Shown piece after piece: positions 27,253-63,404 of a stretch of 64,000 nucleotides of DNA (position 1 is its first letter; every line of letters starts with the position of its first letter). The DNA is from Gluconobacter cerevisiae (GTDB taxonomy: Bacteria; Pseudomonadota; Alphaproteobacteria; Acetobacterales; Acetobacteraceae), in NCBI RefSeq assembly GCF_015244675.1, contig NZ_JABCQO010000008.1, positions 62,001 to 126,000 of the forward strand, written 5' to 3'. The notes beneath the pieces were generated by a model. That model worked only from the letters and a program-made list of their open reading frames with translations. It searched no databases and had not been told where the DNA came from. The translations under genes were made by a program, and so were the position numbers.

Positions 27253-27603
27253 TCAGGCTGCTTCCAGCGACCGGGCAGCGCCCTTCCCTGTTTTTACCGA
27301 GGTGGCGCAGGGCACTGGCACATACCGCCCAAGCACCTTCACCTGTAGAAATTCCGGCACTCTGGCGGAGTAGAAACCAGACACATACGGAATGAGTGCA
27401 CTGCGTATGCGGGCCAGCCGTGCCCGGTCCTCTGGATGGTTTTTCGCGATGGGCGCGACATAGATCTCGCCTTTCGTCCCAATGACCACGGCTTCCGTTC
27501 CCGGTTCGAGATCGTAGTCCGTTGCGTCAAAGCACAGCATCTCACCCTCGACCATGACCGCGCCTGTAACCCGTGCGTCCTGCCGGGTGGCCAGCGCGTT
27601 CAT
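27253..27603 (-). CDS. Antirepressor-linked phage protein (copy 1)
   Basis: 116 residues: MNALATRQDARVTGAVMVEG with GEMLCFDATDYDLEPGTEAVV and RLARIRSALIPYVSGFYS. The fold looks small and beta-rich. A second copy at 63054 is nearly identical for the first 90 residues and differs at the C-terminus. Each copy starts inside the stop of a KilAC antirepressor, so the two genes travel as a cassette. Function unknown. Confidence 0.7.
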   Translation of the reverse strand: MNALATRQDARVTGAVMVEGEMLCFDATDYDLEPGTEAVVIGTKGEIYVAPIAKNHPEDRARLARIRSALIPYVSGFYSARVPEFLQVKVLGRYVPVPCATSVKTGKGAARSLEAA

Positions 27604-27964
27604 GACGCTGGCTCCGGCTTCTTGGCGAAAGGGCGCGCCTCCATCTGCATCAGGTCCGGATCAATCTTCGCACCCGGCACGATCTGAGCCAGTTTTGCGA
27701 GACCCTTAGGCAGAACTTTCACCGTATCGCGGGTCTTTTCCTCGCCGTTCGGGCCCGTGTAGGTGGCGATCTTGTGCCAGAGATACCCGGCGTCGATTTT
27801 GGCTTGATAGGCCAGCCAGTTCTTGCCGTTGTTCCGGCGATAGATCCACTGCGACGTGGCCATGAACGCAATCAGCGCCTTGGGCTTCACTTGCAGGATC
27901 TTTGCCGCTTCCGTCAGGCCGTATGATCCATCGGCCGTGCTGATGCGGTCGAGGGCGGCGGCTT
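27317..27964. repeat. Inverted repeat, left arm (648 bp)
   Basis: This segment and 62693-63340 are nearly identical in opposite orientation. They cover the KilAC domain and most of the following small gene. The encoded KilAC segment of about 125 residues is the same in both copies. Confidence 0.85.
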
Positions 27965-28409
27965 TGGGGGCGGCAAGAGCCAACTGCTCCCGCTGCTTTT
28001 CCACAACCGATTGAAGACCAGTCAGCGCACGAAGGGCAAGCTGTTCAGGCGTCTCCGGGGGAGCGATCTCACCACGTTTGAACGCTGCAAACTGCGTGAC
28101 AATCTCAATGGTGATCTTCGTCGCCGCTGTCGTCTCAGACTTGGCAGTGATGAAGAGGGCCTGTTCTTCATTGAGATAGTGTTCGATCACGGTGTGTCCA
28201 CCGGTTTCCGGGCGACGCGCCACCGTGGCGCATCGACCCATCCGGCAAAGTTCTGCCTCATACCGCTTGATCAGCTTGCGAATATCGCGCGGACGATCGA
28301 AACCCAGGCACGTTGCAAGATCGGTGTCGAGGATACGCAGTTCGCCATCGTGCATGGCGGGAGCGATTACGTTTGAGCCTTCAACGGCTTTCGTGATAAC
28401 GTCTGACAT
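27600..28409 (-). CDS. Phage antirepressor with KilAC domain (module 1)
   Basis: About 269 residues from ATG 28409 (MSDVITKAVEG; AAGGA upstream). The N-terminal domain (LDTDLATCLGFDRPRDIRKL, YLNEEQALFITAKSE, IVTQFAAFKRGE) is of the antirepressor/regulatory type. The C-terminal half is KilAC (ANT): AALDRISTADGSYGLTEAAK, LQVKPKALIAFMATSQWIYR, IDAGYLWHKIATY. Such proteins bind and disable phage repressors. The KilAC half is almost identical to that of the gene at 62290, while the N-terminal domains are unrelated. It sits next to an RHH repressor pair, as in P22 immI. Confidence 0.85.
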   Translation of the reverse strand: MSDVITKAVEGSNVIAPAMHDGELRILDTDLATCLGFDRPRDIRKLIKRYEAELCRMGRCATVARRPETGGHTVIEHYLNEEQALFITAKSETTAATKITIEIVTQFAAFKRGEIAPPETPEQLALRALTGLQSVVEKQREQLALAAPKAAALDRISTADGSYGLTEAAKILQVKPKALIAFMATSQWIYRRNNGKNWLAYQAKIDAGYLWHKIATYTGPNGEEKTRDTVKVLPKGLAKLAQIVPGAKIDPDLMQMEARPFAKKPEPAS

Positions 28410-28426
28410 TGCAGTGTAATCCTTAT

Positions 28427-28615
28427 TCACTGGTTAGAGGCATCGGACTTGCTTCCTACGGCGGGGTCCGATGCCTTTTCTTTTTCCATTTCCTGCCGAA
28501 GCAAGAACGTGATGTGCGCACCCATAGTGCGCTCCTGCTGTTTCGCGCGACGTTGAAGGAAATCCTTCACGCTTTGCTCAAGTCGGATGTGGATTTGGGG
28601 GTCTCGTATGGTCAT
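28427..28615 (-). CDS. Arc/Mnt-like RHH repressor (module 1, leftward)
   Basis: 62 residues from ATG 28615 (AGGAGCC upstream). DPQIHIRLEQSVKDFLQRRA KQQERTMGAHITFLLRQEME is a ribbon-helix-helix dimer unit: beta strand IHIRL then two helices. It precedes the antirepressor gene on the same strand and is divergent from another RHH gene; three palindromic sites lie between them. Likely represses the antirepressor operon. Confidence 0.8.
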   Translation of the reverse strand: MTIRDPQIHIRLEQSVKDFLQRRAKQQERTMGAHITFLLRQEMEKEKASDPAVGSKSDASNQ

Positions 28616-28624
28616 GGCTCCTGC

Positions 28625-28687
28625 TACCATTTTGGTATAAATCACTAATACCAATTTGGTATCATTGCCGTCAATACCAAATTGGTA
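28625..28687. promoter_or_regulatory. Three RHH operators, TACCAAWTTGGTA
   Basis: Perfect or near-perfect 13-bp palindromes: TACCATTTTGGTA (28625-28637), TACCAATTTGGTA (28649-28661) and TACCAAATTGGTA (28675-28687), spaced 24 and 26 bp. They fill the divergent promoter between the two RHH genes, the arrangement used by Arc and Mnt. Confidence 0.82.
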
Positions 28688-28699
28688 CACCGTCAAAAA

Positions 28700-28966
28700 A
28701 TGACAAAAAACGAGTCTCAGATCCATGTTCGAGTACCAGACGACCTAAAGTCTCACCTGGAGGAATCTGCCAAAAATTCTGGCCGCTCGTTGAATGCAGA
28801 GGTAGTCAAAAGACTGGAAGCATCAGTCTCGTTAGATGCTATCCCTACAAACATGGCTGAATTTGATGCTCAATATCTTGAGGCGGCTGAGATGTATGTA
28901 ATGGTTGCGGATGATGCATCTGTGATGCGGCTATTATCAAAACGATTTTTAAATAGAGAAAAATAA
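28700..28966 (+). CDS. Arc-family RHH DNA-binding protein (module 1, rightward)
   Basis: 88 residues from ATG 28700 (MTKNESQIHVRVPDDLKSHL). The strand IHVRVP and helices LEESAKNSGRSLNAEVVKRLE are a classic Arc ribbon-helix-helix, followed by an acidic tail. Divergent from the other RHH gene. The two proteins probably bind the three palindromes between them, perhaps with opposite outcomes. Confidence 0.8.
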   Translation: MTKNESQIHVRVPDDLKSHLEESAKNSGRSLNAEVVKRLEASVSLDAIPTNMAEFDAQYLEAAEMYVMVADDASVMRLLSKRFLNREK

Positions 28967-29036
28967 TCCTTTTGGGGAATTTCTATTCCGAAACCGTCAT
29001 ATTAATAATATATTATATAATTAAGGATTTCTTCTG

Positions 29037-29522
29037 TTGAAAAGAATATTCAAATACATTTCATGTATTTTTTTCTCTATATTTTGCCTCGGTATAATCG
29101 GGCAATTAATTTCTCCAACAAAAAATTTTAATAATAATAGCGCAGCACAGCCGCGTCCTGATGTTGAAGAAAATAACTCCTCTCTCTTCGGGCAAAATAA
29201 TCTGACTTCCGTTCAAAATAACGCAGTCAGGTCAGCGATAAATTACTTAAACATGTCTGGTTTTTCACGAGCTGGTCTTATCCATCAACTATCTTCTGAT
29301 GCTGGAGATGGTTACCCAGTAGCCGATGCTACTGTCGCACTGGACAGCTTGGCTGTAGACTGGAATGAAAATGCAGTCCGGTCTGCCAAACAGTACCTTG
29401 AAGTGTCAGGATTCTCCTGTAAGGGCCTGATTCACCAATTGTCTTCAACAGCTGGGGATAAATATACACTAGGCCAGGCAACTTACGGCGCCCATAAAGC
29501 CGGAGCGTGCGGGCCAACGTGA
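29037..29522 (+). CDS. Ltp-repeat protein, probable superinfection exclusion factor
   Basis: 161 residues from TTG 29037 (AAGGA upstream). N-terminal hydrophobic helix (YISCIFFSIFCLGIIGQLI), then a polar linker, then two Ltp repeats (about 62-109 and 112-159): NAVRSAINYLNMSGFSRAGL and NAVRSAKQYLEVSGFSCKGL, each continuing with IHQLSS and an acidic turn. Ltp-type proteins, known from the S. thermophilus phage TP-J34 lipoprotein, sit at the cell surface and block DNA injection by related phages. A lipobox is not obvious here, so it may be a membrane-anchored rather than lipid-anchored version. AT-rich, so acquired. Confidence 0.8.
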   Translation: MKRIFKYISCIFFSIFCLGIIGQLISPTKNFNNNSAAQPRPDVEENNSSLFGQNNLTSVQNNAVRSAINYLNMSGFSRAGLIHQLSSDAGDGYPVADATVALDSLAVDWNENAVRSAKQYLEVSGFSCKGLIHQLSSTAGDKYTLGQATYGAHKAGACGPT

Positions 29523-29685
29523 AAGGTTCCCTCCCCCCGCATATTGTGGTTTGGAAAACTCCGCGACGAAAATGCATCTTTGCGTACCGGTTAACCCAAA
29601 AGGCCAGCATGTCCCACTACATAGAAACATGCTCGTGGGAAATGAGGTCATGGCCCTCCCCTAGTATCTGAACCCTTGGGCGGAA

Positions 29686-29871
29686 GTGCGGAGGTTGCGC
29701 GCCCAGTTGCGCAGCGAGAGCGATCATTATTCAGAACGGCATGCAGGATTCATGCGGCACACTGACAGCCAGAAGCGGGAGATTGAGCGGCTCAAGACGC
29801 GGGTTGCTGAGCTGGAGCCGTGCGATCCGAAGCCGGGACGTGTGAAGGTGACGCGGAAGCCACGATCATGA
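29686..29871 (+). CDS. Small coiled-coil protein before DUF2256
   Basis: 61 residues from a GTG, with [20 protein letters not shown] then [10 protein letters not shown], a short coiled coil, and a basic end ([10 protein letters not shown]). The frame is open slightly upstream, so the true start is uncertain. Related by the QKREIExLKxRV segment to the relic before the chromosomal DUF2256 gene at 12039. Function unknown. Confidence 0.5.
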
Positions 29872-29893
29872 GCCAGATGTGGGAGTTCTGAGC

Positions 29894-30055
29894 ATGACCA
29901 GAGGAAGAGGTAAGATCGCACCCAAACCCGCCAAACAAAACCTCCCTTCCAAGGTCTGTCCTGTCTGCGACCGTCCGTTCACTTGGCGCAAGAAATGGGC
30001 AAAGGTTTGGGATCAGGTTCGGTATTGCTCCGAGGCTTGTAAGGGCGGTCGGTAG
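29894..30055 (+). CDS. DUF2256 zinc-ribbon protein (prophage copy)
   Basis: 53 residues: [20 protein letters not shown], then [20 protein letters not shown] and [12 protein letters not shown]. Same CxxC...CxxxC zinc ribbon as the host protein at 12039, with most residues identical. Lies among accessory genes in the prophage. Function unknown. Confidence 0.7.
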
Positions 30056-30081
30056 GAATTTAGCAGTAGATTGGACAAAAA

Positions 30082-30765
30082 GTGAATATTGAAGAATTAA
30101 AAGACAAAAAACTTTGGAGCTATATAAAATTCTTTTCACTCGTTTTTTCGATTCCAATTTCCATTGTTTCTGCCTTTGTAATGGTTTTCATAATCTGGAA
30201 TGACTCCGAAGACTCAGTATCTTCTTGGGTATCTTCAGGAGCTTCTGTGATTAGTGCCTTAGCTACGATTGGTGTTGGGGTGTTTGCTTATAAAATTGCC
30301 CAGAAACAGAACGATTCGGGTCAAATTGGTGTTTTAATAGATGTTTCTCGGTATTTTTCAGATTCAATAAATTCAAATTTCACTTCGATGACTAGCGCTT
30401 CATCTCAACACTTGGCTGACATGGAATTTCCCTCAAATTACATAGGCGATTATATACAAATGGGGGAAATTATAAAAAGCGTATCAAGTGATACGACAGC
30501 AGATACCTCGAAAATAGTCTTTAAATCGCTTATTTCGCCCATGGCATGGAACGAATTAGAGACTGGGAAACTATTGTGGAATTTCATAAACTATGAACTG
30601 AAGAGCAGAGGTATAGAGTTTTCATTATTAACTGAAGATGAAAAGAAAATATTTATCACGATATACCGTCAATATAAAGACTCACAAAATAACTTCTGCA
30701 AACTAGTTAATATAGAAAATAGAGAATATTGGATTCAAATAGAAAAAAGATTACAAATAAACTAG
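30082..30765 (+). CDS. AT-rich moron: two-TM protein with cytoplasmic domain
   Basis: 227 residues from GTG 30082. Two membrane segments (IKFFSLVFSIPISIVSAFVM and SSGASVISALATIGVGVFAY) are followed by a soluble helical domain to the end (QIGVLIDVSRYFSD, LSPM..NELETGKLLWNFINYEL). Strongly AT-rich compared with phage genes. No known family. The two-TM-plus-helical-domain shape is common among phage-exclusion and defence effectors, but nothing proves it. Confidence 0.65.
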   Translation: MNIEELKDKKLWSYIKFFSLVFSIPISIVSAFVMVFIIWNDSEDSVSSWVSSGASVISALATIGVGVFAYKIAQKQNDSGQIGVLIDVSRYFSDSINSNFTSMTSASSQHLADMEFPSNYIGDYIQMGEIIKSVSSDTTADTSKIVFKSLISPMAWNELETGKLLWNFINYELKSRGIEFSLLTEDEKKIFITIYRQYKDSQNNFCKLVNIENREYWIQIEKRLQIN

Positions 30766-30817
30766 AAATTTTTTTAAAATTATTCAATATTATAATCTCC
30801 ATATATTTACATTATTC

Positions 30818-30847
30818 GCGCGATTAACTTAATATTGTTGATCGCGC
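30818..30847. repeat. Inverted repeat in AT-rich spacer
   Basis: GCGCGATTAA and TTGATCGCGC, one mismatch, 10 bp apart, in the 259-bp AT-rich gap before the packaging genes. A second shorter one, CACAG...CTGTG, follows at about 30851-30873. No gene is seen in this gap; these could be regulator sites for the late operon promoter. Confidence 0.45.
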
Positions 30848-31024
30848 AATCACAGAATAATGGTAAGCCTGTGATATTTCGTCACAGCCTTCCTTGCGCC
30901 CAACAAAGCACAACGATAGATTCTGTTTATGAAAGATCCTTCTACTAAGAGGGTTAAGCATCCTACCATTCATTTTAACGCTTCCTCCTTGTACAGACAC
31001 CCTCCCCTGTACTAACCTGCTCCC

Positions 31025-46732: not shown

Positions 46733-47026
46733 TCAGGCTCTCCGCAACGCCTCGTTGATGCGGGTCTGCCAACCCGGCCCGGTGCTCTTGAACTTCTCTA
46801 GAACGTCCTGATCCAGTCGGAGCGAGACAGAGCGCTTCGTGGCAGCCTTCTGAGGACCGCGAACGCGCCTCGCCTTTGCCAGCGCCGGAGCGACTTCAAC
46901 TGCCGGTCTCATGGCCTGAAAGTCAGCCTCAGTCAGTTCAGGGTTATCGCTATCGAGTGCAATGCCCTGATTGATCCGGGCATCTTCCTCGTCAGTCGGC
47001 ATGATGATGTTAGTCTTGCTAGACAT
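46733..47026 (-). CDS. brnA: BrnA-type antitoxin
   Basis: 97 residues: IIMPTDEEDARINQGIALD, then NPELTEADFQAMRPA and RSVSLRLDQDVLEKFKSTGP GWQTRINEALRRA, the ribbon-helix-helix tail of BrnA. Its start overlaps the BrnT stop. BrnA neutralises BrnT and represses the operon. Confidence 0.87.
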   Translation of the reverse strand: MSSKTNIIMPTDEEDARINQGIALDSDNPELTEADFQAMRPAVEVAPALAKARRVRGPQKAATKRSVSLRLDQDVLEKFKSTGPGWQTRINEALRRA

Positions 47027-47273
47027 AGAGCAATACCTCCCGTTTATTCGCTTTCCGTAAGCTGATGATCCGAACGATCCGGGTTTCAATACTGTACACC
47101 AGCACATGAAGACGGTCGCCGATGGGGCCGATCGCAACAAGGCGCGGTTCGTTCGATGAGTGACTGGCCCTGATGAAAGCCGCGTCCCATTCAAAGCCTT
47201 CAGCGATAACGAAATCAACGCCGTGCTTCTCAATGTTGCTCAGGCGCTTCGTTTCGTCCCAGTCGTATCTCAT
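47019..47273 (-). CDS. brnT: BrnT-type RNase toxin
   Basis: 84 residues with the BrnT signature: YDWDETKRLSNIEKHGVDF, then RLVAIGPIGDRLHVLVYS and RIISLRKANKREVLLYV. BrnT is a RelE-fold ribonuclease that halts translation under stress. Together with BrnA it forms a type II system carried in the baseplate island. Confidence 0.9.
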   Translation of the reverse strand: MRYDWDETKRLSNIEKHGVDFVIAEGFEWDAAFIRASHSSNEPRLVAIGPIGDRLHVLVYSIETRIVRIISLRKANKREVLLYV

Positions 47274-47393: not shown

Positions 47394-48245
47394 TTAAGGA
47401 AGATATTTAATGACAGAAAGACTTGGAGCAACAATCTGACTACCCGTTATCGAGGTGTATGTCGTCGGAATTCCGCCCATCATTACGGCAGCAGCTCCAT
47501 AATGAAGGTGCCCACTTGGATCTGTCACAAAGGTCGCGAACGTCTGATTTACATTGGGCATAGTGTCTACAATCAAAACCGTATTTGTGCTTATCCATTG
47601 CGGCTGCCCCCATCGAGCCGCTATATTTGCCACATAGCATTTATTTTCAGTAAGATAAGGATCTTGAAAGGCAAGCATTATTGGCACGGTTACGGGTACG
47701 CCGTGGCAGCGGGCAATGATACCTTGGCCATAGGTGTTAATGCCCTCTTGATAGCGTTCTTGTTCTTCTTTTTTGCGCATATCGGAATATACTAATTCCG
47801 CGGACTGCCCTTGATGGATTTTTTCGGCAATTTTCAAGATTTCGTTACGCTGAATTCCTGAATTCTCGCTTTTGGCCGTCCGAAGATCGGATAGAGAAAC
47901 TTTGTTCTGTGCAATTTCTGTAAATATATATTTGTAATCGCTCGCAAGGGCTGATGTCGGAGTGGGTGAATTGTCCATAATTTGACCGACAATTGACACT
48001 TCTTCAGCGGTAGTCGCGCCGTTCTGGCGGAACATATTGGCGTCATTTGGGCTGTACCCCAGGTCATGCCACTGTCGTGCGTCGTGATAGGTGAAGCCTG
48101 CGACTTTCCACTCTTCCGGTGAATGGTAATAGGAATCAGACGTATCTTCTTGCGGCCACTGGCTCCATTCGTCGGGCTTGCTGGTATCTAGTTCAGCACA
48201 TCCTGACAGCACTAACGCCGCCATAACGCAAAGACACTTCTTCAT
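47394..48245 (-). CDS. Lipoprotein moron of unknown function
   Basis: 283 residues. Start ATG 48245 gives the lipoprotein signal MKKCLCVMAALVLSGCAEL with lipobox LSGC. The mature part has WKVAGFTYHDARQWHDLGYS PNDANMFRQNG, a motif-like repeat of W/GF/G-Y-xx-A, and GQPQWISTNTVLIVDTMPN near the end. AT-richer than the phage core. It shares a 30-bp leader block with the secreted moron at 61389. Lipoproteins expressed from prophages often change surface properties or exclude other phages; no direct evidence here. Confidence 0.75.
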   Translation of the reverse strand: MKKCLCVMAALVLSGCAELDTSKPDEWSQWPQEDTSDSYYHSPEEWKVAGFTYHDARQWHDLGYSPNDANMFRQNGATTAEEVSIVGQIMDNSPTPTSALASDYKYIFTEIAQNKVSLSDLRTAKSENSGIQRNEILKIAEKIHQGQSAELVYSDMRKKEEQERYQEGINTYGQGIIARCHGVPVTVPIMLAFQDPYLTENKCYVANIAARWGQPQWISTNTVLIVDTMPNVNQTFATFVTDPSGHLHYGAAAVMMGGIPTTYTSITGSQIVAPSLSVIKYLP

Positions 48246-48250
48246 CCACC

Positions 48251-48280
48251 CCTCCATTCACACTCCGTAACATGCCGGAG
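48251..48280 (-). promoter_or_regulatory. Shared leader block of two secreted morons (copy 1)
   Basis: CCTCCATTCACACTCCGT then AACATGCCGGAG. It matches 61961-61990 at 24 of 30 positions, including the last 12 bases, and lies just upstream of the lipoprotein start; the CCTCC is its ribosome site read on the minus strand. Confidence 0.55.
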
Positions 48281-48300: not shown

Positions 48301-48684
48301 CTATTGATCGTCAGAAGCGGCGCGAATTTTCTCAAGGCGTCGCTCAAGTTGCGTTAGACGCATCTCTGAGATCTCAACGGCGTCTTTCGCCGACTGATCA
48401 TCTGGATGATCTTCAAGCCAGATCAGGGCTTCTTCATACATCCCACGCTCTAAAAACAGAGCGTCTTCGATTTGCTGCTCTTCACTGGGGCCGGTGCGCA
48501 CCGCTGTGGCGAAGGCGTCGCTTTCTTCAGTGATGATGTCATACATGGGGTCATTGAACGTTCTTGCGAGCCGTTCATTTATCTCGGCGGTCATAGAATG
48601 GCCGCGCTTTTCCGCCGCCTCTGCCACCTGCCGTTTCAGTGCTTCGGGTATCCGGAGTCGGAAATGAAGATCTTCTCGTGCCAT
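48301..48684 (-). CDS. Arc-family RHH repressor (module 2, leftward)
   Basis: 127 residues from ATG 48684. MAREDLHFRLRIPEALKRQV then AEAAEKRGHSMTAEINERLA is an Arc ribbon-helix-helix. The acidic helical tail (EISEMRLTQLERRLEKIRAA) is unusually long and may dimerise or bind a partner. Divergent from the small RHH gene at 48786 with shared sites between. Confidence 0.78.
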   Translation of the reverse strand: MAREDLHFRLRIPEALKRQVAEAAEKRGHSMTAEINERLARTFNDPMYDIITEESDAFATAVRTGPSEEQQIEDALFLERGMYEEALIWLEDHPDDQSAKDAVEISEMRLTQLERRLEKIRAASDDQ

Positions 48685-48695: not shown

Positions 48696-48776
48696 TGCCA
48701 CACATTTCGCTTGACCGATATGCCGCACGCCTGATAGCGGTGTGTCTGCCACACCAAATGACACACGGGTGTGGCA
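48696..48776. promoter_or_regulatory. RHH operators of module 2 (TGCCACAC boxes)
   Basis: TGCCACAC at 48696-48703 and 48747-48754, and the inverse GTGTGGCA at 48769-48776. The middle one is part of a palindrome GGTGTGTCTGCCACACC (48739-48755). They fill the divergent promoter of the two RHH genes and differ completely from the TACCAAWTTGGTA sites of module 1. Confidence 0.65.
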
Positions 48777-48785
48777 GGAGGTAAA

Positions 48786-48992
48786 ATGCAAGTTCGAGAA
48801 TGGTCGCAGTTCAGGATGAGGCTCCCGCCTGATCTGCATATGGCCCTGAAGCTGAGCGCCGTCAGGAACCGCAGAACACTCAATGCGGAGTTCGTGTTTG
48901 CCCTCGAAGGCTACGCAGCAACAATTTCGGAAACAGAAAAGGCGTCGGACCAGCCTGCAAGCAATCCCGACGCCTCAACCACCACCCTCTGA
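48786..48992 (+). CDS. Small Arc-family RHH protein (module 2, rightward)
   Basis: 68 residues from ATG 48786 (AGGAGG upstream): WSQFRMRLPPDLHMALKLSA then VRNRRTLNAEFVFALEGYAA. A complete ribbon-helix-helix with an acidic Ser/Asp tail. First gene of the rightward antirepressor operon. Confidence 0.78.
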   Translation: MQVREWSQFRMRLPPDLHMALKLSAVRNRRTLNAEFVFALEGYAATISETEKASDQPASNPDASTTTL

Positions 48993-49005
48993 AAAGGAAA
49001 TGGCC

Positions 49006-49257
49006 ATGAGCCACATTATCACATTGGGCATCACGCCCGCAATGATTCCGGGTATCCGCAAGGCTGCTGAGATCTGCGAGGAATACGGCGAAGAAAATTT
49101 GAGCATCGCTCACGATGACATAAGGCGCGTATGCGCCAAGAAAGAGCGTTCGGAAGCCGATTTCGACCGTTCGGATATGCACGGAGTGCGGTATCATGCC
49201 GGCAAAGAAATGGCGTCCCTTCTGCGCAACCTCATTCGCGAAGGAGATGCAGCATGA
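49006..49257 (+). CDS. Small phage protein before the antirepressor
   Basis: 83 residues from ATG 49006 (AAGGA 8 nt upstream); an ATG at 49000 is possible. SHIITLGITPAMIPGIRKAA EICEEYGEENLSIAHDDI then a helical tail. Its stop overlaps the antirepressor start. Function unknown. Confidence 0.62.
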   Translation: MSHIITLGITPAMIPGIRKAAEICEEYGEENLSIAHDDIRRVCAKKERSEADFDRSDMHGVRYHAGKEMASLLRNLIREGDAA

Positions 49258-50141
49258 GCAATGCAATCATTTCCTTCAATTTTGAGGGTGTGCAGGTTCA
49301 AGCCGTAAACCGAAATGGCGACGCATGGTTTGTCGGTATGGAGGTAACGGCCGCTCTTGGATACGCCGATACCGATCAGGCTATCCGAAACCACTGCAAA
49401 GCCGCAGAAAACCTTAAACCCGTTGAATTGACGGGTTTGGGAATAAGCGCCAAATCGCCGCGCGGACTCAAGCTCATCCCTGAACGCGATTTGTATCGCT
49501 TAGTGATGAATTCCCAGAAGCCGACGGCTATTGCCTTCGAGGAGAAGGTGGTGGGAGAGATCCTTCCTTCCATTCGCAAGACTGGCGGCTACATCGCGGC
49601 AGCTAAGGAAGAGACTCCGGAAGAGTTGGCGCTTCGGGCCGTGACGGTTCTGCAGGCTGCGCTAGAGCGTCAAAGGGAAGAGAGTCGCCTTGAGATCGAA
49701 CGTCAAAAGGCATTGATTGACGAAACCGCCCCCAAGGCTGCGGCACTAGATCGGATCAGTGCGTCAGGCGGCGAGTTTGGTCTGACCGAAACGGCAAAAA
49801 TGATTCAGGTGAAGCCGGGGAAATTCTTTGACTGGCTAGATCAGAACCGTTGCCGGTACAGTAAGGGTAAGGCCAAGATGGCCTATCAAGAGCGCATTGA
49901 TGCCGGATATCTTAAAAACCGGGCGAACCCTTACATCGACGCGAATGGTGAGCCGCAGGTTGGGAATACCATCAAGGTTACAGCCAAGGGGCTGGCATGG
50001 TTCGCCAGAATGGTTCCGGACGCTGAACTTGACCCGGTCTATGCGCACCTTGCGGAGAACGAAGCCAAGACCGGCCTTCGCAATCTGGCTGAAAAGGTCG
50101 GTAAGCCCCCTTTCGCCAAATCCCCGGAGCCAGTGTCATGA
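49254..50141 (+). CDS. Phage antirepressor, BRO-N plus KilAC (module 2)
   Basis: 295 residues from ATG 49254. The N-terminal BRO-N domain: IISFNFEGVQVQAVNRNGDA WFVGMEVTAALGY, then LIPERDLYRLVMNSQKP and GEILPSIRKTGGYIA. A helical linker, then KilAC: AALDRISASGGEFGLTETAK, then MIQVKPGKFFDWLDQNRCR and GNTIKVTAKGLAWFARMV. BRO/KilAC proteins act as antirepressors in lambdoid and P22-like phages. The KilAC part is homologous to, but clearly different from, those in modules 1 and 3. Confidence 0.88.
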   Translation: MSNAIISFNFEGVQVQAVNRNGDAWFVGMEVTAALGYADTDQAIRNHCKAAENLKPVELTGLGISAKSPRGLKLIPERDLYRLVMNSQKPTAIAFEEKVVGEILPSIRKTGGYIAAAKEETPEELALRAVTVLQAALERQREESRLEIERQKALIDETAPKAAALDRISASGGEFGLTETAKMIQVKPGKFFDWLDQNRCRYSKGKAKMAYQERIDAGYLKNRANPYIDANGEPQVGNTIKVTAKGLAWFARMVPDAELDPVYAHLAENEAKTGLRNLAEKVGKPPFAKSPEPVS

Positions 50142-50476
50142 CCTATGTTCCGCTGGCAACGGCGGAACGTCAGGAACAGGCCGCAAGAGCGCGTGTGCAA
50201 CTCATCACCTCTGACGCCATGCTGATCAACGAGATGAACCGTTGGACGGCTCTCCGCTACAACGGCATCCCGGCAGATCAGGCAGCGGCGGATCTTTGGT
50301 ATGAGATTGAGGGTTACCAGCCGAAAACAGAGCGTGCCAAAGCCGCTAAAGCTCAGTTCCTTCGACAGTTCCCCTATGTCGCACTCAAGCGGAGCGAGTT
50401 TGAAGAACGCCTTAATAAAGCTGCTGAAGCCTTCGAGCGCCGGAATGAGCGCGTAGGAGCGAAACTCTGCGCCTGA
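50138..50476 (+). CDS. Antirepressor-linked phage protein, 112 residues
   Basis: Starts with an ATGA overlap with the antirepressor. MTYVPLATAERQEQAARARV, then NRWTALRYNGIPADQAAADL and a helical end. It holds the same place as the 116-residue genes in modules 1 and 3 but is not clearly related. Function unknown. Confidence 0.62.
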   Translation: MTYVPLATAERQEQAARARVQLITSDAMLINEMNRWTALRYNGIPADQAAADLWYEIEGYQPKTERAKAAKAQFLRQFPYVALKRSEFEERLNKAAEAFERRNERVGAKLCA

Positions 50477-50575: not shown

Positions 50576-50956
50576 ATGTCCGGACCTTGCTCAAACCACG
50601 CCGTAGCTGAACTACACGCCTTCAGACGAGCGGCATTCGATGCGGGGATGACAGAAGACGACATCAGCGAGGTCGTGACGATCGTGTCTCAAGACCCGCA
50701 TGCTGGTGTTGTGATTAAGGGGACTGGAGGATGTCGCAAACTCCGTATTGCCGGCAAGGGCAGAGGAAAAAGCGGCGGGTACCGGACCATAACATTCTTC
50801 GGGGGTGATGAACTGCCTGTTTTTCTGATCACTGTTTTTTCCAAAGGTGAAAAAGTGAATCTTAGTCAAAAAGAGCGAAATGCCCTCGTGGGTATGACGC
50901 GGCAGATCATCACAGCGTATGAAATGAAGATTATAAGAATAGGAACCGGAACATGA
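50576..50956 (+). CDS. RelE/HigB-type toxin
   Basis: 126 residues. AFRRAAFDAGMTEDDISEVV then GVVIKGTGGCRKLRIAGKGR GKSGGYRTITFF and PVFLITVFSKGEKVNLSQKE, the RelE-fold pattern of toxins whose gene precedes an XRE antitoxin (HigBA-like). It probably cuts mRNA in the ribosome. The stop overlaps the antitoxin start. Confidence 0.85.
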   Translation: MSGPCSNHAVAELHAFRRAAFDAGMTEDDISEVVTIVSQDPHAGVVIKGTGGCRKLRIAGKGRGKSGGYRTITFFGGDELPVFLITVFSKGEKVNLSQKERNALVGMTRQIITAYEMKIIRIGTGT

Positions 50957-51279
50957 GCAAAAGCGCGTTTGATAAAATCGCCGCAGGCCTAGACGAGGCC
51001 ATTGCTATTGCAGAAGGCACAATGGAGCCGGCGCAACTGCATGTTCCGGCTGAAATCGACGTTAAGGCAATCCGTAATAAGGTAGGCATGACACAAGAGG
51101 CATTTGCTTCCGCCTTCTGTTTTACGGTCCACCAAATTCGTCAATGGGAACAGGGACGGGTCCGCCCGCTAGGAGCGATGCGCGCCTATCTGATGTTTAT
51201 CGATAAGTTTCCGCGAGAAGTGAAAGCGAGCCTCGTGACGTCTGTAGATGATGTGACGCCTGCGCGGAGAGCTGGATAA
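50953..51279 (+). CDS. XRE antitoxin (HigA-like)
   Basis: 108 residues. DVKAIRNKVGMTQEAFASAF, then CFTVHQIRQWEQGRVRPLGA is a helix-turn-helix of the XRE family, typical of antitoxins paired with RelE-like toxins. Likely neutralises the toxin and autoregulates. Confidence 0.85.
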   Translation: MSKSAFDKIAAGLDEAIAIAEGTMEPAQLHVPAEIDVKAIRNKVGMTQEAFASAFCFTVHQIRQWEQGRVRPLGAMRAYLMFIDKFPREVKASLVTSVDDVTPARRAG

Positions 51280-59484: not shown

Positions 59485-59500
59485 ATGACTGGAGGGCAGA

Positions 59501-59770
59501 ATGCCCGATGAAAATACCGGCAGCACAGATTTGCTTGAACGAGTTGTGCGTGTCGAGACAAAACTCGAGCATCAGCAGGACACGACGCAGTCTCTGTCGG
59601 ATCGTGTGGGAACGCTTGAAGATACGGTGAAAAGCGGCTTCGCATCTCTCGGCGCCAAAATGGATTCTTTAAACAGCCGTCGCGCCATGGTCATCGCGGG
59701 TGGCTCAGGCATGGGAGGCGGTGTCGCTGTGGGTCTGTATTCCCTCGCACACCTGCTTTGGCACCTGTAA
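59501..59770 (+). CDS. Small coiled-coil protein with one membrane segment (holin-like)
   Basis: 89 residues: LLERVVRVETKLEHQQDTTQ, then SLSDRVGTLEDTVKSGFASL is a coiled coil, and RAMVIAGGSGMGGGVAVGLY SLAHLLWHL is a membrane helix. The shape recalls XhlA/hemolysin-type holin partners. Overlaps the endolysin-like gene by TAATG. Confidence 0.68.
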   Translation: MPDENTGSTDLLERVVRVETKLEHQQDTTQSLSDRVGTLEDTVKSGFASLGAKMDSLNSRRAMVIAGGSGMGGGVAVGLYSLAHLLWHL

Positions 59771-60249
59771 TGACCAGACTTAATCTCTCACAGATCAAGC
59801 GTCTGTGGATCCGTCCGGCATTGCAGGCAATTGGCCTGGATGATCCGGCTCACGTCAACATCGTGACGGGCATCGGACTGGTCGAGAGCGGCTATGTCTG
59901 GCTGGAGCAGCTGCACGATGGACCTGCCAAGGGGTTCTGGCAGATGGAGCCTGCCACCCATGACGACATCTGGAAAAACTCGTTGCCGGCACCGTGCCGG
60001 TCGAAGATTGCGTCCGGACTGAACCGCCTTTTGTATGGCCAGACTCATTCCGCCGATTTGATGATCGCTCTCCCGCTGTATGGCGCGGGCATGTGTGCGG
60101 TCAAAGTTCTTCTGGCGCCTGAACCGATCCCGGCCGCTGACGATGCGTCCGGCCAGGCGCGGTATCACAAACGCTGGTACAACAGCCCGCTTGGAGCAGC
60201 CTCTGTGATGGCCAACATCTCGAACTTTCAGGCCGCGATCGCCGCCTGA
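59770..60249 (+). CDS. Endolysin-like transglycosylase
   Basis: 159 residues from ATG 59770. GIGLVESGYVWLEQLHDGPA then KGFWQMEPATHDDIWKN holds the catalytic Glu (VESGY) and the GFWQMEP motif of lysozyme-like transglycosylases. Breaks peptidoglycan for release. No signal peptide, so it needs a holin. Confidence 0.77.
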   Translation: MTRLNLSQIKRLWIRPALQAIGLDDPAHVNIVTGIGLVESGYVWLEQLHDGPAKGFWQMEPATHDDIWKNSLPAPCRSKIASGLNRLLYGQTHSADLMIALPLYGAGMCAVKVLLAPEPIPAADDASGQARYHKRWYNSPLGAASVMANISNFQAAIAA

Positions 60250-60276
60250 CATTCCCTCGAATATCTGGAGAACACC

Positions 60277-60612
60277 ATGGACTGGACAACCCTGTTCCAG
60301 ACGGTCCTGCCGTACCTGCCTGCGCGGTATGCGGGAGATATCGTCTCGATCCTGACCTTCCTGATCGCGGCGGCCGCGCTGGCCATGCGCTTCTGGAAGC
60401 CGCCCGCCTCGGGCAGCAGGCTGTCGCTGATCTACAAGGTCGTTTCCAGCCTGGCGCAGTCGAAGGGCTGGAACACGAATGCTTATCAGCCCGATGCCAA
60501 GGCCCTGATGATCCCGGCCGAGGCCAGCCGTACGATCGAGGCGGCCAAGCTGGGCCTCGATCCGACCTCAACCCATCCCAAGGCTGGTGCGCCTCCCAAG
60601 CCGGCCGCCTGA
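60277..60612 (+). CDS. Lysis-region membrane protein (holin or spanin partner)
   Basis: 111 residues with one membrane helix (IVSILTFLIAAAALAMRFW), then a soluble part with KALMIPAEASRTIEAAKLGL and a Pro/Ala-rich end. In the lysis cluster, either holin or i-spanin-like; not decidable from sequence. Confidence 0.62.
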   Translation: MDWTTLFQTVLPYLPARYAGDIVSILTFLIAAAALAMRFWKPPASGSRLSLIYKVVSSLAQSKGWNTNAYQPDAKALMIPAEASRTIEAAKLGLDPTSTHPKAGAPPKPAA

Positions 60613-60656
60613 CCCGAAGGAGGCAGGCTCCGCCTGTCAGACCGCTCTGCAATGAC

Positions 60657-60708
60657 AACTTGCGAATTTGCGCAAGTTCATCCGCCGCCCTCTGAGGCGG
60701 TTTTTTTT
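60657..60708 (+). terminator. Tandem hairpins before the lipoprotein gene
   Basis: AACTTGCG/CGCAAGTT (60657-60678, perfect 8-bp stem) and CCGCC/GGCGG followed by eight T (60685-60708). Two stem-loops in a row make a strong stop. Confidence 0.78.
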
Positions 60709-60723
60709 ATGTCTGGAGACTTC

Positions 60724-61269
60724 ATGCGTAACCTCTTTCTGCATCCGTTCGCTTTCCTGAGCTGCATCTTCCGTCCAGCACGCTCCCTGGCTGTTCTGTT
60801 GCTTGTCGGATGCTTCGGGCTGGCGGCTTGTCAGACCACGGCGAACACGGCGACCTTCAACACGGCCGCGCTCAACAGTGACGCCACGGCCATCGCCTAT
60901 GCGGTCCAGGCGATCGAAGGCATTCCCGAACTGGAAAGCCACCTGTCTGCTGCGGACAAGGCGAAGTTCGACAACCTGATCGCGCAGATCCGCAGCGTGA
61001 CAGCGCAGGTGGCGGCCAACTCCAATGGCTCCATCACGGTGGCGACCGGCAAGGACTGGGCCAAGTCGCTCGGCACGGATCTCGAAACCCTGCTGGCGAT
61101 CGCGACCCCGATCGTGAAGGTCTATTCGCCCTCGGCTGCCACCTACATGCAGACCGTCCAGGCGATGATTCCGCTGGTCGAGGCGCTGGCCGGTGTCACG
61201 GCATCTCCGTATGCCGCGCCTCTTCAGTCGCCGGAGCTGATCCGCGCCCGGATCTATCAGGGCGTCTAA
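60724..61269 (+). CDS. Phage lipoprotein (possible outer spanin)
   Basis: 181 residues from ATG 60724, starting after a terminator. The N-terminus has FLSCIFRPARSLAVLLLVGC FGLAACQTT, with lipobox LAAC giving a lipid-anchored Cys. The mature part is helical (DATAIAYAVQAIEGIPELES, then HLSAADKAKFDNLIAQIRSV). Position at the end of the lysis genes is typical for an o-spanin, though it is long for one. Confidence 0.72.
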   Translation: MRNLFLHPFAFLSCIFRPARSLAVLLLVGCFGLAACQTTANTATFNTAALNSDATAIAYAVQAIEGIPELESHLSAADKAKFDNLIAQIRSVTAQVAANSNGSITVATGKDWAKSLGTDLETLLAIATPIVKVYSPSAATYMQTVQAMIPLVEALAGVTASPYAAPLQSPELIRARIYQGV

Positions 61270-61275
61270 TGCGAA

Positions 61276-61295
61276 GAGGCGGCTTCGGCCGCCTC
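61276..61295 (+). terminator. Terminator after the lysis cluster
   Basis: GAGGCGGC-TTCG-GCCGCCTC, a perfect 8-bp stem with a UUCG loop. Only a weak T-run (CTTTT) follows. Confidence 0.65.
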
Positions 61296-61388
61296 AAACC
61301 CTTTTGGATCAGGTGACAGGCAATATCTCCTTGCCAGAGCGGAGTTGGCTCAATCCTTTTTACTGCTAAATTATCTAAGTATGAAAAA

Positions 61389-61955
61389 TTAATTTTTTAG
61401 CATTATTAAGACAGAGAAGCTTTCTTGTTGAACCAATTCATTAAATTCGGGGGAAACTGAAAATTGTTTTGACACTGTGCGTACATTATCAGGGTCAAAA
61501 CGATCCCAATTAATTTTTTGATAGGTAGATTGGCTAAAATCGAACGAAAACATTGGTTTCTTGTCATCGTTACCATACTGATCGGTAGAAATGTAAGAAT
61601 AAGAGAAGTGGCAAGATTCATTTTTTACAGAACGCATTACTTTTGGAATAATTTCTTTGAAAAGTTCAACAGAAAAAATATTAGCCAAGTAATGGAAGGC
61701 ACTATTCCCAGCTTCAGGATCTAGCCGTTTGTTAAACAAACCGGACTCGATCATCTCTGGAAGCTGAGCGGAGAACTTCTGTTGGTCGATATCGATGTTT
61801 GCCTGACACCCATTCATATCGTGAACGTTAACAGCCATTCCCCACTGTTCATCTTTAGCAACGGCGTCCGATGCGTTTACATGCTTCGGTGCAGTCGTCA
61901 GCACCAAAATACAAATAAGATAAATCTTTAGTCTTATTCGGAATAATGCAGCCAT
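61389..61955 (-). CDS. AT-rich secreted moron of unknown function
   Basis: 188 residues. Start ATG 61955 (GGAGGGACAA upstream): ALFRIRLKIYLICILVLTTA PKHVNAS is a signal peptide. The mature part has DMNGCQANIDIDQQKFSAQL, GNSAFHYLANIFSVELFKEI and SCHFSYSYISTDQYGN, with two Cys that could pair. Strongly AT-rich. Shares a leader block with the lipoprotein moron at 47394. Probably exported to the periplasm or surface; role unknown. Confidence 0.72.
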   Translation of the reverse strand: MAALFRIRLKIYLICILVLTTAPKHVNASDAVAKDEQWGMAVNVHDMNGCQANIDIDQQKFSAQLPEMIESGLFNKRLDPEAGNSAFHYLANIFSVELFKEIIPKVMRSVKNESCHFSYSYISTDQYGNDDKKPMFSFDFSQSTYQKINWDRFDPDNVRTVSKQFSVSPEFNELVQQESFSVLIMLKN

Positions 61956-61960
61956 TTGTC

Positions 61961-61990
61961 CCTCCACGTATACACCGCAACATGCCGGAG
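61961..61990 (-). promoter_or_regulatory. Shared leader block of two secreted morons (copy 2)
   Basis: CCTCCACGTATACACCGC then AACATGCCGGAG, the partner of 48251-48280. Includes the ribosome site of the moron at 61955. Confidence 0.55.
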
Positions 61991-62004
61991 AACGAAAGGG
62001 CGGG

Positions 62005-62205
62005 CTAGGCGTCCTTTTCGGAGTCTAGTCCTTTTTGGATTAGGCGGCGGATGGCTTCGGATCGGGATAAATTATGAGCAGCCGCCCATGCCTCGAGAGC
62101 CGCGACGTCCTGTTCTGGCATTCGCGTGGATATCAGCGGGTCTCTGCCATTTTCGGGCGGACGACCTCTCTTCTTTTTTTGGTGCACCGATATTGCATTG
62201 CTCAT
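62005..62205 (-). CDS. RHH repressor (module 3)
   Basis: 66 residues: basic start (HQKKKRGRPPENGRDP), then LISTRMPEQDVAALEAWAAA HNLSRSEAIRRLIQKGL, a standard ribbon-helix-helix. Divergent from the Rha/KilAC antirepressor gene with a 12-bp inverted repeat between. Likely represses it. Confidence 0.78.
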   Translation of the reverse strand: MSNAISVHQKKKRGRPPENGRDPLISTRMPEQDVAALEAWAAAHNLSRSEAIRRLIQKGLDSEKDA

Positions 62206-62230
62206 AATTACGGTATACCCATATAAGCAA

Positions 62231-62260
62231 GGCGAAGCAAGACGGCCATCTCGCTTCGCC
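62231..62260. promoter_or_regulatory. Inverted repeat in the module 3 divergent region
   Basis: GGCGAAGCAAGA and TCTCGCTTCGCC (62231-62242, 62249-62260), 11 of 12 pairs, 6-bp gap. No T-run, so it is more likely an operator for the RHH protein or a leader hairpin of the antirepressor mRNA than a terminator. Confidence 0.5.
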
Positions 62261-62289
62261 CCCTAACCACCAGCAAGGGGCTATATCCC

Positions 62290-63057
62290 ATGTCGGCAGC
62301 TAATATGCTCGATATCACAAATTCGACGACAAAGACCATGTCCAGCCGCGAGATCGCGGAGCTAACGGGAAGCGGTCATGACAATGTGTTGAAAACAGTT
62401 CGCTCCCTCATAAAAAGGGGTGTCGTTTCTGGAAACGACACCCCTTACGTCCATTCGCAAAATGGGCAGACCTACACGGAAATTCTACTCGACTACCGCA
62501 ACACGATGGTTGTGGTGTCTGGCTATAGCCCTGAACTGCGCGCCAAGGTAATTGATCGCTGGATGGAGTTGGAGACACGCGCCGCCGTCGGACAGGCAGT
62601 CCCGGCCTCCTTCCGTGAGGCCCTGCTTCTAGCAGCCGACCAGCAGGAGAAGATTGAGGCACAAGACAAGGCTCTTGCAGTTGTCACACCAAAAGCCGCC
62701 GCCCTCGACCGCATCAGCACGGCAGACGGATCATACGGCCTGACGGAAGCGGCTAAGATCCTGCAAGTGAAGCCCAAGGCGCTGATTGCGTTCATGGCCA
62801 CGTCGCAGTGGATCTATCGCCGGAACAACGGCAAGAACTGGCTGGCCTATCAAGCCAAAATCGACGCCGGGTATCTCTGGCACAAGATCGCCACCTACAC
62901 GGGCCCGAACGGCGAGGAAAAGACCCGCGATACGGTGAAAGTTCTGCCTAAGGGTCTCGCAAAACTGGCTCAGATCGTGCCGGGTGCGAAGATTGATCCG
63001 GACCTGATGCAGATGGAGGCGCGCCCTTTCGCCAAGAAGCCGGAGCCAGCGTCATGA
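62290..63057 (+). CDS. Phage antirepressor, Rha-like plus KilAC (module 3)
   Basis: 255 residues. The N-terminal half is Rha-like: MSSREIAELTGSGHDNVLKT VRSLIKRG, then YTEILLDYRNTMVVVSGYSP and ELRAKVIDRWMELE. The C-terminal KilAC (from AALDRISTADGSYGLTEAAK on) is almost identical to the gene at 27600. One KilAC is thus joined to two different N-terminal domains in the same prophage. Confidence 0.88.
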   Translation: MSAANMLDITNSTTKTMSSREIAELTGSGHDNVLKTVRSLIKRGVVSGNDTPYVHSQNGQTYTEILLDYRNTMVVVSGYSPELRAKVIDRWMELETRAAVGQAVPASFREALLLAADQQEKIEAQDKALAVVTPKAAALDRISTADGSYGLTEAAKILQVKPKALIAFMATSQWIYRRNNGKNWLAYQAKIDAGYLWHKIATYTGPNGEEKTRDTVKVLPKGLAKLAQIVPGAKIDPDLMQMEARPFAKKPEPAS

Positions 63058-63340
63058 ACGCGCTGGCCACCCGGCAGGACGCACGGGTTACAGGCGCGGT
63101 CATGGTCGAGGGTGAGATGCTGTGCTTTGACGCAACGGACTACGATCTCGAACCGGGAACGGAAGCCGTGGTCATTGGGACGAAAGGCGAGATCTATGTC
63201 GCGCCCATCGCGAAAAACCATCCAGAGGACCGGGCACGGCTGGCCCGCATTCGCTGCGCTCTCATTCCGTATGTGTCTGGCTTTTACTCGCCTCGAGTGC
63301 CGGAATTTTTACAGGTAAAGGTGCTCGGGCGGTATGTGCC
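62693..63340. repeat. Inverted repeat, right arm (648 bp)
   Basis: Same sequence as 27317-27964 in the other direction, with only a few differences. Starts in the codons just before AALDRIS and ends inside the last codons of the next gene, where the two copies diverge. Confidence 0.85.
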
Positions 63341-63404
63341 CATATTCTCTCCGGCTTCGGAGAAAGCAGGAAAGAGTGCAGTGCGGGCGTTGGAACGCGC
63401 CTGA
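63054..63404 (+). CDS. Antirepressor-linked phage protein (copy 2)
   Basis: 116 residues; first 90 nearly identical to the gene at 27253 (Ser-to-Cys and Ala-to-Pro changes), then a different C-terminus (SPASEKAGKSAVRALERA). Overlaps the antirepressor stop as copy 1 does. Confidence 0.7.
   Translation: MNALATRQDARVTGAVMVEGEMLCFDATDYDLEPGTEAVVIGTKGEIYVAPIAKNHPEDRARLARIRCALIPYVSGFYSPRVPEFLQVKVLGRYVPIFSPASEKAGKSAVRALERA

What the first reader, a model, noticed from the sequence alone, without database searches (positions are those of the whole stretch)
27253..63404. Three immI-like modules, each RHH repressor plus KilAC antirepressor, in one prophage
At 27-29, 48-50 and 62-63 kb the same plan recurs: small RHH protein(s), a divergent promoter with its own palindromic operators, and an antirepressor that has a different N-terminal domain (regulatory/BRO-N/Rha) joined to a KilAC domain. 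P22 has one such module. Three with separate operator codes suggest a layered lysogeny switch or a set of weapons against repressors of different competing prophages.
Basis: partly seen in the sequence, partly recalled or inferred. Interest (0 to 1): 0.8.

Follow-up and report, generated by a model that had tools for sequence, protein, structure and literature searches.

The report
Three P22-like antirepressor cassettes, one prophage
A virus dormant in an acetic-acid bacterium carries three antirepressor gene cassettes, two of them laid out like the well-known immI switch of Salmonella phage P22 down to a likely antisense RNA, with parts swapped between related viruses, which suggests competition between viruses over dormancy.

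Summary
The observation largely holds. One 53-kb Gluconobacter prophage (67-bp repeat in a tRNA-Val gene) carries three KilAC antirepressor genes beside ribbon-helix-helix (RHH) repressor genes; no other genome scanned here had more than two KilAC genes. Modules 1 and 2 have the P22 immI plan: mnt-like RHH, operators, arc-like RHH, ant. Module 3 is reduced (one CopG-type RHH, no arc, weak operator). Module 1's operator occurs only at its own three sites in the 3.0-Mb genome.

(1) Antirepressors 1 and 3 share an inverted repeat with a 496-nt identical core inside diverged flanks: recent recombination between them. (2) Between arc and ant, on the antisense strand, lies a conserved, covarying hairpin with a T-run, where P22 has its sar antisense RNA. 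It is in 13 of 13 arc-type leaders examined and precedes Rha, Bro-N, KilA-N and ORF6N proteins in Gluconobacter and other genera of its family, yet Rfam's sar model does not match it.

Best reading: separately coded, exchangeable antirepressor cassettes for competition between phages, held off by RHH repressors and a sar-like RNA. Function is inferred: there are no transcript, binding or induction data, and P22 Ant belongs to a different protein family.

The parts
13953..14019 (.). left copy of the 67-bp direct repeat (att candidate); right copy at 67336-67402, outside the window, overlapping tRNA-Val(gac)
   Evidence: exact repeat; tRNA
21625..22350 (-). S24-type CI-like repressor, possible target
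   Evidence: PF00717 E 1.6e-8
27253..27603 (-). module 1: 116-aa ORF behind ant, no family
   Evidence: homologues behind other ants
27600..28409 (-). module 1: antirepressor A1, weak Rha-like N-terminus plus KilAC
   Evidence: PF03374 E 4.6e-28, PF09669 below cut-off
27407..27902 (-). 496-nt tract identical to 62755-63250 (inverted)
28373..28400 (+). module 1: possible antisense promoter TTGAGC-16-GATAAC inside ant (weak)
   Evidence: 8 of 12 consensus positions
28407..28491 (+). module 1: predicted sar-like antisense RNA; hairpin 28438-28476 then T-run
28427..28615 (-). module 1: arc-like RHH
   Evidence: weak Arc/RHH matches; start
28625..28687 (.). module 1: three operators TACCAWWYTGGTA
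28700..28966 (+). module 1: mnt-like RHH
   Evidence: PF03869 E 1.5e-6
48301..48684 (-). module 2: mnt-like RHH
   Evidence: PF03869 E 3.7e-7
48746..48777 (.). module 2: operator-like inverted repeat, 10-bp arms
   Evidence: 0 of 500 shuffles
48786..48992 (+). module 2: arc-like RHH
   Evidence: RHH families below cut-off in Pfam, phrog_795 E 4e-10
48925..49002 (-). module 2: predicted sar-like antisense RNA; hairpin 48939-48976 then T-run
   Evidence: fold z only -2.1
49000..49257 (+). module 2: 85-aa ORF between arc and ant
   Evidence: no Pfam family
49254..50141 (+). module 2: antirepressor A2, Bro-N plus KilAC
50138..50476 (+). module 2: 112-aa ORF behind ant
   Evidence: homologues behind other ants; no Pfam family
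62005..62205 (-). module 3: CopG-type RHH
   Evidence: PF01402 E 1.3e-6
62212..62219 (.). module 3: palindrome GGTATACC, doubtful operator
62231..62260 (.). module 3: leader hairpin, poor T-run on the antisense strand
   Evidence: not matched by model R1
62290..63057 (+). module 3: antirepressor A3, Rha plus KilAC
62755..63250 (+). 496-nt tract identical to 27407-27902 (inverted)
63054..63404 (+). module 3: 116-aa ORF behind ant, 89% identical to the one of module 1

Best explanation
Each module is an immI-type antirepressor cassette. In an established lysogen the mnt-like RHH protein, read divergently, sits on its own operators and shuts the promoter of the arc-ant operon; the arc-like RHH is the first protein of that operon. 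A short antisense RNA, started near the 5' end of ant (or of the first gene after arc) and ended at a hairpin and T-run at the 3' end of arc, covers the ribosome-binding site and keeps read-through transcripts from making Ant. On entry into a cell without the matching RHH, Ant is made briefly and disables a resident phage repressor, its N-terminal domain probably setting the target. With several codes in one phage, a resident with one matching RHH cannot silence all cassettes. Cassettes are exchanged between phages, and between slots of one phage, by recombination at the conserved antisense-RNA block and at the KilAC/3'-ORF block. Shown by sequence: the parts, the codes of modules 1 and 2, the covarying hairpin, the exchange, the identical tract. 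Inferred: transcription of the antisense RNA, repressor binding, antirepressor activity, targets, the competitive role. Module 3 is a reduced form to which only part of this applies.
For: P22's record has mnt(-), operators, arc(+), sar(-), ant(+), with the sar terminator at the arc 3' end and the sar promoter inside ant; modules 1 and 2 have the same gene order. Antisense hairpin with T-run in 13 of 13 arc-type leaders, 25-30 nt from the start codon, 9 of 9 outer pairs in each; two-sided changes in 11 cells against a shuffle mean of 3.1, reached in 0 of 5000. Module 1's antisense RNA folds as two hairpins (z -4.8) as P22 sar does (z -5.3). A covariance model gives 15 places in 26 Gluconobacter genomes; 14 lie behind an RHH-type gene and before an antirepressor-type gene or its operon partner; seven further places in six genomes of the family likewise. 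Module 1 operator: 3 sites in 3.0 Mb, all in module 1; G018 with the same RHH pair has three sites at the same 26/24 spacing in another slot. Three RHH-strand groups go with three operator types. Modules with unrelated RHH and unrelated ant genes are alike over about 80 nt around the hairpin and start. G016, terL 100% and portal 99% alike, has another RHH and N-terminus in slot I with homologous KilAC and 3' ORF. dN/dS 0.17-0.35.
Against: No expression, binding or induction data. The antisense promoter is weak (8 of 12 consensus positions in module 1), and the generic scan called neither an antisense promoter nor a terminator at these hairpins (its loop limit is 8). Module 2's antisense fold is only modestly better than shuffles (z -2.1, 6 of 200), and L052's is not (21 of 200). 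Stem registers were chosen by best pairing, and the sequences are related. Rfam's sar model finds P22 sar (97.8 bits) but nothing in the window. Module 3 lacks arc, has a poor T-run and no model match. P22 Ant is another family. Antirepressors near recE/CI in relatives lack the element. AlphaFold model poor (pLDDT 67), no fold match. In P22, immI deletion lowers lysogeny frequency (PMC11016777, passages), a role my reading does not use.
Confidence: 0.6

Rival explanations
1. The cassettes act within this prophage: Ant proteins counter its own CI (21625-22350) and tune the lysis-lysogeny decision on infection or induction, as layers of one switch.
For: P22 immI deletion lowers the frequency of lysogeny (PMC11016777, passages); P22 Ant acts on its own phage's C2.
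Against: Nothing here ties an antirepressor to this CI. Cassettes swap between phages with different CI genes: G016 shares recE 95% and terL 100% but its locus shows no match to this CI (E limit 1e-6). Three different codes are not needed for one target.
Confidence: 0.25
2. The modules are toxin-antitoxin-like: RHH antitoxin-type regulators in front of a KilAC protein that is toxic by itself.
For: KilA-C of Phi11 Gp07 stops E. coli growth when overexpressed (PMC5944126, passages); repressor-antirepressor pairs were noted as TA-like (PMC2701414, passages); module 2 is flanked by brnTA and a RelE/HTH pair.
Against: P22-like order with two divergent RHH genes and an antisense hairpin; PMC2701414 itself judges antirepressors not to be typical toxins; no PADLOC match.
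Confidence: 0.1
3. The hairpin is not an antisense RNA gene but a leader element of the sense mRNA, or a terminator that insulates the cassette, conserved as a recombination joint.
For: It is palindromic and also present in the sense leader; antisense promoter evidence is weak; the model matches some loci on the sense strand.
Against: The T-run is on the antisense side in 13 of 13 arc-type leaders (6 to 10 T of 12), in both orientations of the module relative to the late genes; the conserved block reaches into the first codons of the next gene, where P22 has its sar promoter.
Confidence: 0.25
4. The 34.7-kb inverted repeat is an inversion switch that flips the late region.
For: Long inverted repeat with 496 identical nt; phage encodes a YqaJ/RecE-type exonuclease.
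Against: A crossover in the identical core leaves both Ant proteins unchanged; relatives keep slot I in the usual orientation; no recombinase gene at the arms was seen.
Confidence: 0.05

Closest known systems
Salmonella phage P22 immI (mnt, arc, sar, ant; 'ant moron')
   Same: Divergent mnt-like and arc-like RHH genes, operators between, ant behind arc, antisense hairpin at the arc 3' end; module 2 lies among late genes with ant in their direction, as in P22.
   Different: Ant is KilAC with Bro-N or Rha N-termini, not P22_AR_N/C; RNA not matched by Rfam sar; up to three cassettes in one phage; module 3 has no arc.
Rfam RF00262, sar RNA
   Same: Two-hairpin fold, position and strand relative to ant.
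   Different: No sequence/structure match in the window or near module 1 at E up to 5; stem sequences unrelated.
Trans-acting antirepressors of Gifsy-1, Gifsy-3 and Fels-1 (PMC3121763, abstract)
   Same: Antirepressor genes outside the main immunity region; action on foreign repressors is the proposed role.
   Different: Those are small proteins under LexA or a CI-type repressor; here KilAC proteins beside RHH genes.
C. difficile phage phiCDKH01, two KilAC antirepressors (PMC11172241, passages)
   Same: More than one KilAC antirepressor in one phage.
   Different: Both near one XRE repressor, 79% alike; no RHH or antisense RNA mentioned in the passages seen.
Phage P1 immI with c4 antisense RNA (recalled)
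   Same: Antisense control of an antirepressor operon.
   Different: No Rfam family matched in the window; here the RNA lies antisense at the ant start, not upstream on the same strand (P1 layout recalled).

Membership tests
P22-type immI region | two divergent RHH repressor genes (mnt, arc) in front of ant | tested here: met
   modules 1 and 2; module 3 not met: one CopG-type RHH, no arc
P22-type immI region | operators between mnt and arc read by the module's own RHH | tested here: inconclusive
   operator sequences found and unique for module 1, less specific for module 2, weak for module 3; binding not tested
P22-type immI region | antisense RNA (sar) at the arc-ant junction | tested here: inconclusive
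   hairpin, T-run, position and covariation met in modules 1 and 2; promoter weak, transcript untested; module 3 not matched
P22-type immI region | Ant of the P22_AR_N/P22_AR_C family | tested here: not met
   P22 Ant matches PF10547 and PF10548; A1-A3 match KilAC
P22-type immI region | Ant inactivates a phage repressor | not testable with these tools
   needs an experiment
Rfam RF00262 sar RNA | match to the curated model | tested here: not met
   control P22 97.8 bits; window none
KilAC antirepressors (PF03374) | KilAC domain above the curated cut-off | tested here: met
   A1, A2, A3: 98, 79, 98 bits, cut-off 25.3
Type II toxin-antitoxin | RHH antitoxin that binds and neutralises a toxic partner | not testable with these tools
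   KilA-C toxicity is in print for Phi11 Gp07 only

The most novel reading that the evidence does not exclude
A previously undescribed family of sar-like antisense RNAs, not covered by Rfam RF00262, is the constant core of immunity cassettes in phages of acetic acid bacteria. Both sides of it are exchangeable: upstream the RHH repressor (Arc-type or CopG-type) with its operator code, downstream the recognition domain (Rha, Bro-N, KilA-N, ORF6N), with or without KilAC. The RNA block and the KilAC block act as recombination joints, so a phage can collect several independently coded antirepressors; this prophage has three and shows a fresh exchange between two of them.
Probability: 0.45. Interest if true: 0.75.

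Novelty: new variant of a known kind. Interest (0 to 1): 0.6.

Why it matters
P22 immI is the textbook antirepressor switch with an antisense RNA. The same plan with an antisense hairpin at the same place, in alphaproteobacterial phages with unrelated antirepressor proteins, would mean that this control logic outlives the proteins it controls. Operator codes that diversify together with RHH residues, and several codes in one prophage, give a natural set for testing how phages escape each other's immunity and how RHH proteins change DNA specificity.

Tried and rejected
Inversion switch by the inverted repeat: a crossover in the identical core leaves both Ant proteins unchanged, and relatives keep slot I in the usual orientation; I read the tract as recombination between paralogues. 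Inversion is not excluded.

Late-gene terminator as the meaning of the hairpin: rejected because it is antisense to ant in both orientations of the modules relative to the late genes.

Known RNA families: no match in the window at gathering scores, no sar around module 1 at E up to 5 (modules 2 and 3 were not searched at that threshold). Defence genes: no PADLOC match for ten module or neighbour proteins. Structure: one AlphaFold job, pLDDT 67, no PDB match at E 0.001. 'An exported protein always follows mnt': true by eye in the window's three modules, but of 29 modules tried a script could score 16 and 5 passed a hydrophobicity threshold (one of these, L088, is a brnA frame), against 4 of 51 other window genes; 2 of the window's 3 modules were scored. 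Not a rule. The covariation count had inconsistent registers and is superseded.

Selection in counts: one search lists 47 antirepressor ORFs. I chose 24 leaders; 21 have a hairpin starting 26-31 nt from the point 2 nt inside the start codon; exceptions are L054, L064 and G024 (in G024 the model later found the element further upstream, before an extra gene). Antirepressors near recE/CI (L039, L041, L044, L045 and the second copies in L052, L053, L056) and distant ones show no such element by eye. Operators were parsed by eye; 8 modules are assigned to three groups, the rest of those printed are unassigned. The genome-wide model scan is lossy (150 candidates scored per genome as a rule): it missed the G007 module that one search finds.
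Full report
What is there. The window is part of a 3.0-Mb genome in 40 contigs. A 67-bp direct repeat at 13953-14019 and 67336-67402 brackets an integrase (14096-15199, minus strand) and the phage genes; the right copy overlaps a tRNA-Val(gac) gene. The prophage is thus about 53.4 kb and holds all three modules. Its order is ordinary: integrase, YqaJ/RecE-type exonuclease, S24-type CI (21625-22350), replication, terminase, portal, tape measure, baseplate.

The three modules. The genome has exactly three KilAC proteins, all here. Module 1: mnt-like RHH 28700-28966(+), arc-like RHH 28427-28615(-), A1 27600-28409(-), 116-aa ORF 27253-27603(-). Module 2: mnt-like RHH 48301-48684(-), arc-like RHH 48786-48992(+), 85-aa ORF 49000-49257(+), A2 49254-50141(+), 112-aa ORF 50138-50476(+). 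Module 3: CopG-type RHH 62005-62205(-), A3 62290-63057(+), 116-aa ORF 63054-63404(+). Of 100 genomes scanned (own included) 20 have KilAC: own three, G001 two, the rest one. Of 289 genomes of the class (own included) 11 have it, four others with two and the rest with one. Of 16 related virus records, many of them fragments, 4 have two, 11 one, 1 none. Against relatives, dN/dS is 0.22 and 0.35 for the A1 N-terminus, 0.17 and 0.23 for A2, 0.20 and 0.34 for A3; one further pair was saturated.

Operators. TACCAWWYTGGTA occurs at three places in the genome, all in module 1, 24 and 26 nt apart. G018, whose RHH pair is 83% and 91% identical, carries three such sites at the same spacing although its module sits in another slot. 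By eye, RHH strand and operator go together in three groups: QIHVR with TACCAAWTTGGTA (2 modules), M-I/L-H-V/I-R with TATCACGGTGATA (2), SIT-I/V-R with GAGTGCA/TGCACTC (4) (that these residues touch DNA is recalled from Arc and Mnt). The other modules printed were not assigned. Module 2 has an inverted repeat at 48746-48777 (0 of 500 shuffles) with a half-site that is not specific to it. Module 3 has only an 8-bp palindrome.

The inverted duplication. A1 and A3 share a 732-nt inverted repeat, 94% identical, 34.7 kb apart. Inside it 496 nt are identical (27407-27902 and 62755-63250); the flanks match at 67 of 74 and 123 of 162 positions. The nearest other copies in hand are 96.0% (G. kondonii) and 94.4% (G. 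cadivus) identical over the same 496 nt. This is the pattern of a recent exchange between two older paralogues. The assembly is in 40 pieces, so long reads should confirm it.

A sar-like RNA. In P22 the 70-nt sar RNA runs from the start of ant back to a terminator at the 3' end of arc, with its promoter inside ant (record annotation). Passages in PMC2629481, PMC11016777 and PMC12111858 describe it as an antisense control of ant or of the arc-ant operon. Here, at the same place and strand relative to ant, is a hairpin followed by a T-run. I examined 24 leaders out of 47 antirepressor ORFs in hand; 21 have a hairpin at nearly the same distance from the start codon. In the 13 arc-type leaders nine outer pairs form in each, 25-30 nt from the start codon, with 6 to 10 T in the 12 nt at the 3' side. 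The 8 distinct arm pairs have two-sided changes at 6 of 9 pairs and in 11 cells; shuffles average 2.2 and 3.1, and 2 and 0 of 5000 reach the observed values; sliding one arm by 1-2 nt drops pairing to 50% or less. Registers were chosen by best pairing and the sequences are related, which favours the structure; RNAalifold on a separate MAFFT alignment gives the same stem, 10 of 14 pairs with a two-sided change. The 64-kb window holds 7 such terminator-like hairpins on both strands; two are these. Module 1's antisense RNA folds as two hairpins with z -4.8, P22 sar with z -5.3; module 2 gives z -2.1, module 3 z -2.7 and L052 z -1.2. The promoter is the weak point.

How far it goes. A covariance model from nine of these leaders matches the other four arc-type leaders at E 3.5e-10 to 3.5e-7, but none of the CopG-type leaders in that search, module 3 included, nor P22. 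In 26 Gluconobacter genomes it gives 16 matches at 15 places in 13 genomes. Fourteen places lie behind an RHH-type gene and before an antirepressor-type gene or its operon partner; one, in G007, is a plain terminator. Downstream proteins include Rha (L086, L089, L090, L094), KilA-N (L087) and ORF6N (L088) without KilAC; in L092 a 188-aa protein without family comes before a KilAC protein. The RHH genes are Arc-type or, in L086, L089 and L092, of the CopG-type PHROG families that module 3's RHH also matches. In 120 genomes of the family, own and G001 included, it matches 8 genomes; the six new ones hold seven places, before ORF6N, Rha, Bro-N plus KilAC, and KilA-N (one plus KilAC) proteins. RHH-type genes were confirmed by profile for L097, L098, L099 and both modules of G050; L101's candidate matched no family and L100's was judged by eye. 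G050 has two such modules 2.9 kb apart. Rfam's sar (RF00262) finds P22 sar at 97.8 bits and nothing in the window.

Exchange. The G. cadivus prophage (G016) matches this one at terL 100%, portal 99% and terS 99%, yet in slot I it has an A3-like N-terminus and a CopG-type RHH (38% to module 3's) joined to the homologous KilAC and 116-aa ORF, where the window has module 1. Module-1-type parts sit in slot II of other phages (G018, L051), and a slot near recE/CI holds other antirepressors. Modules with unrelated RHH and unrelated ant genes stay alike around the hairpin: module 2 against L089 and L088 has 20, 20 and 20 or 19 of 20 identical in three successive windows and 17 in the fourth, then 10 or 13, with 5 to 16 elsewhere. 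So the RNA block looks like one joint and KilAC plus its 3' ORF like the other. High turnover of antirepressor regions is known in P22-like phages: ten types in sixteen (PMC2629481, section 15 read).

How it probably works. By analogy with P22, RHH proteins silence each ant, the antisense RNA guards against read-through, and Ant acts when the phage enters a cell without the matching RHH. Read-through matters most for module 2, which lies between tape measure and baseplate hub with ant in the direction of the late genes. Antirepressors that hit foreign prophages are known for Gifsy and Fels-1 (PMC3121763, abstract). Several coded cassettes would let a phage keep at least one antirepressor active against most residents. 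Targets, binding and transcription are untested.

Novelty. Ten searches of the open-access library showed, in the titles and abstract starts listed, no sar-like RNA with KilAC, Rha, KilA-N or ORF6N antirepressors and no immI modules in acetic acid bacteria; several listings were cut, and subscription papers are missing. A paper on temperate phages of acetic acid bacteria does not use the word antirepressor in its main text (PMC8566455, passages). Two KilAC antirepressors in one phage are in print (PMC11172241, passages). I call this a new variant of a known kind.

Noticed in passing
29037-29522 (+): Ltp-type surface lipoprotein (PF07553, E 1.6e-29) behind the mnt-like gene of module 1; an 84% homologue sits beside the same RHH pair in G018 and another near a module in G013. 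P22 has sieA on the same side of mnt. A link of this family to superinfection exclusion is recalled.
   Followed up: partly
46733-47273 (-) and 50576-51279 (+): Module 2 is flanked by two toxin-antitoxin pairs: BrnT/BrnA and a RelE-type toxin with an HTH partner. BrnT/BrnA homologues flank modules in L028, L042 and L066.
   Followed up: partly
47394-48257 (-) and 61389-61967 (-): Proteins with signal-peptide-like starts lie behind the RHH genes of modules 2 and 3; the first has no Pfam family.
   Followed up: partly
leaders in L028, L042, L066, L067: The loop of the sar-like hairpin occurs in both orientations (TCGCCAAAC and its reverse complement), as if the stem-loop had been inverted.
   Followed up: no
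L102 (G050:C1:2076000-2088000): Two sar-like RHH/antirepressor modules (KilA-N and ORF6N) in tandem, followed by a RelE/HigA-like pair (by eye).
   Followed up: partly
63488-64000 and beyond (+): Protein of unknown function (phrog_19005) between module 3 and the right att repeat.
   Followed up: no
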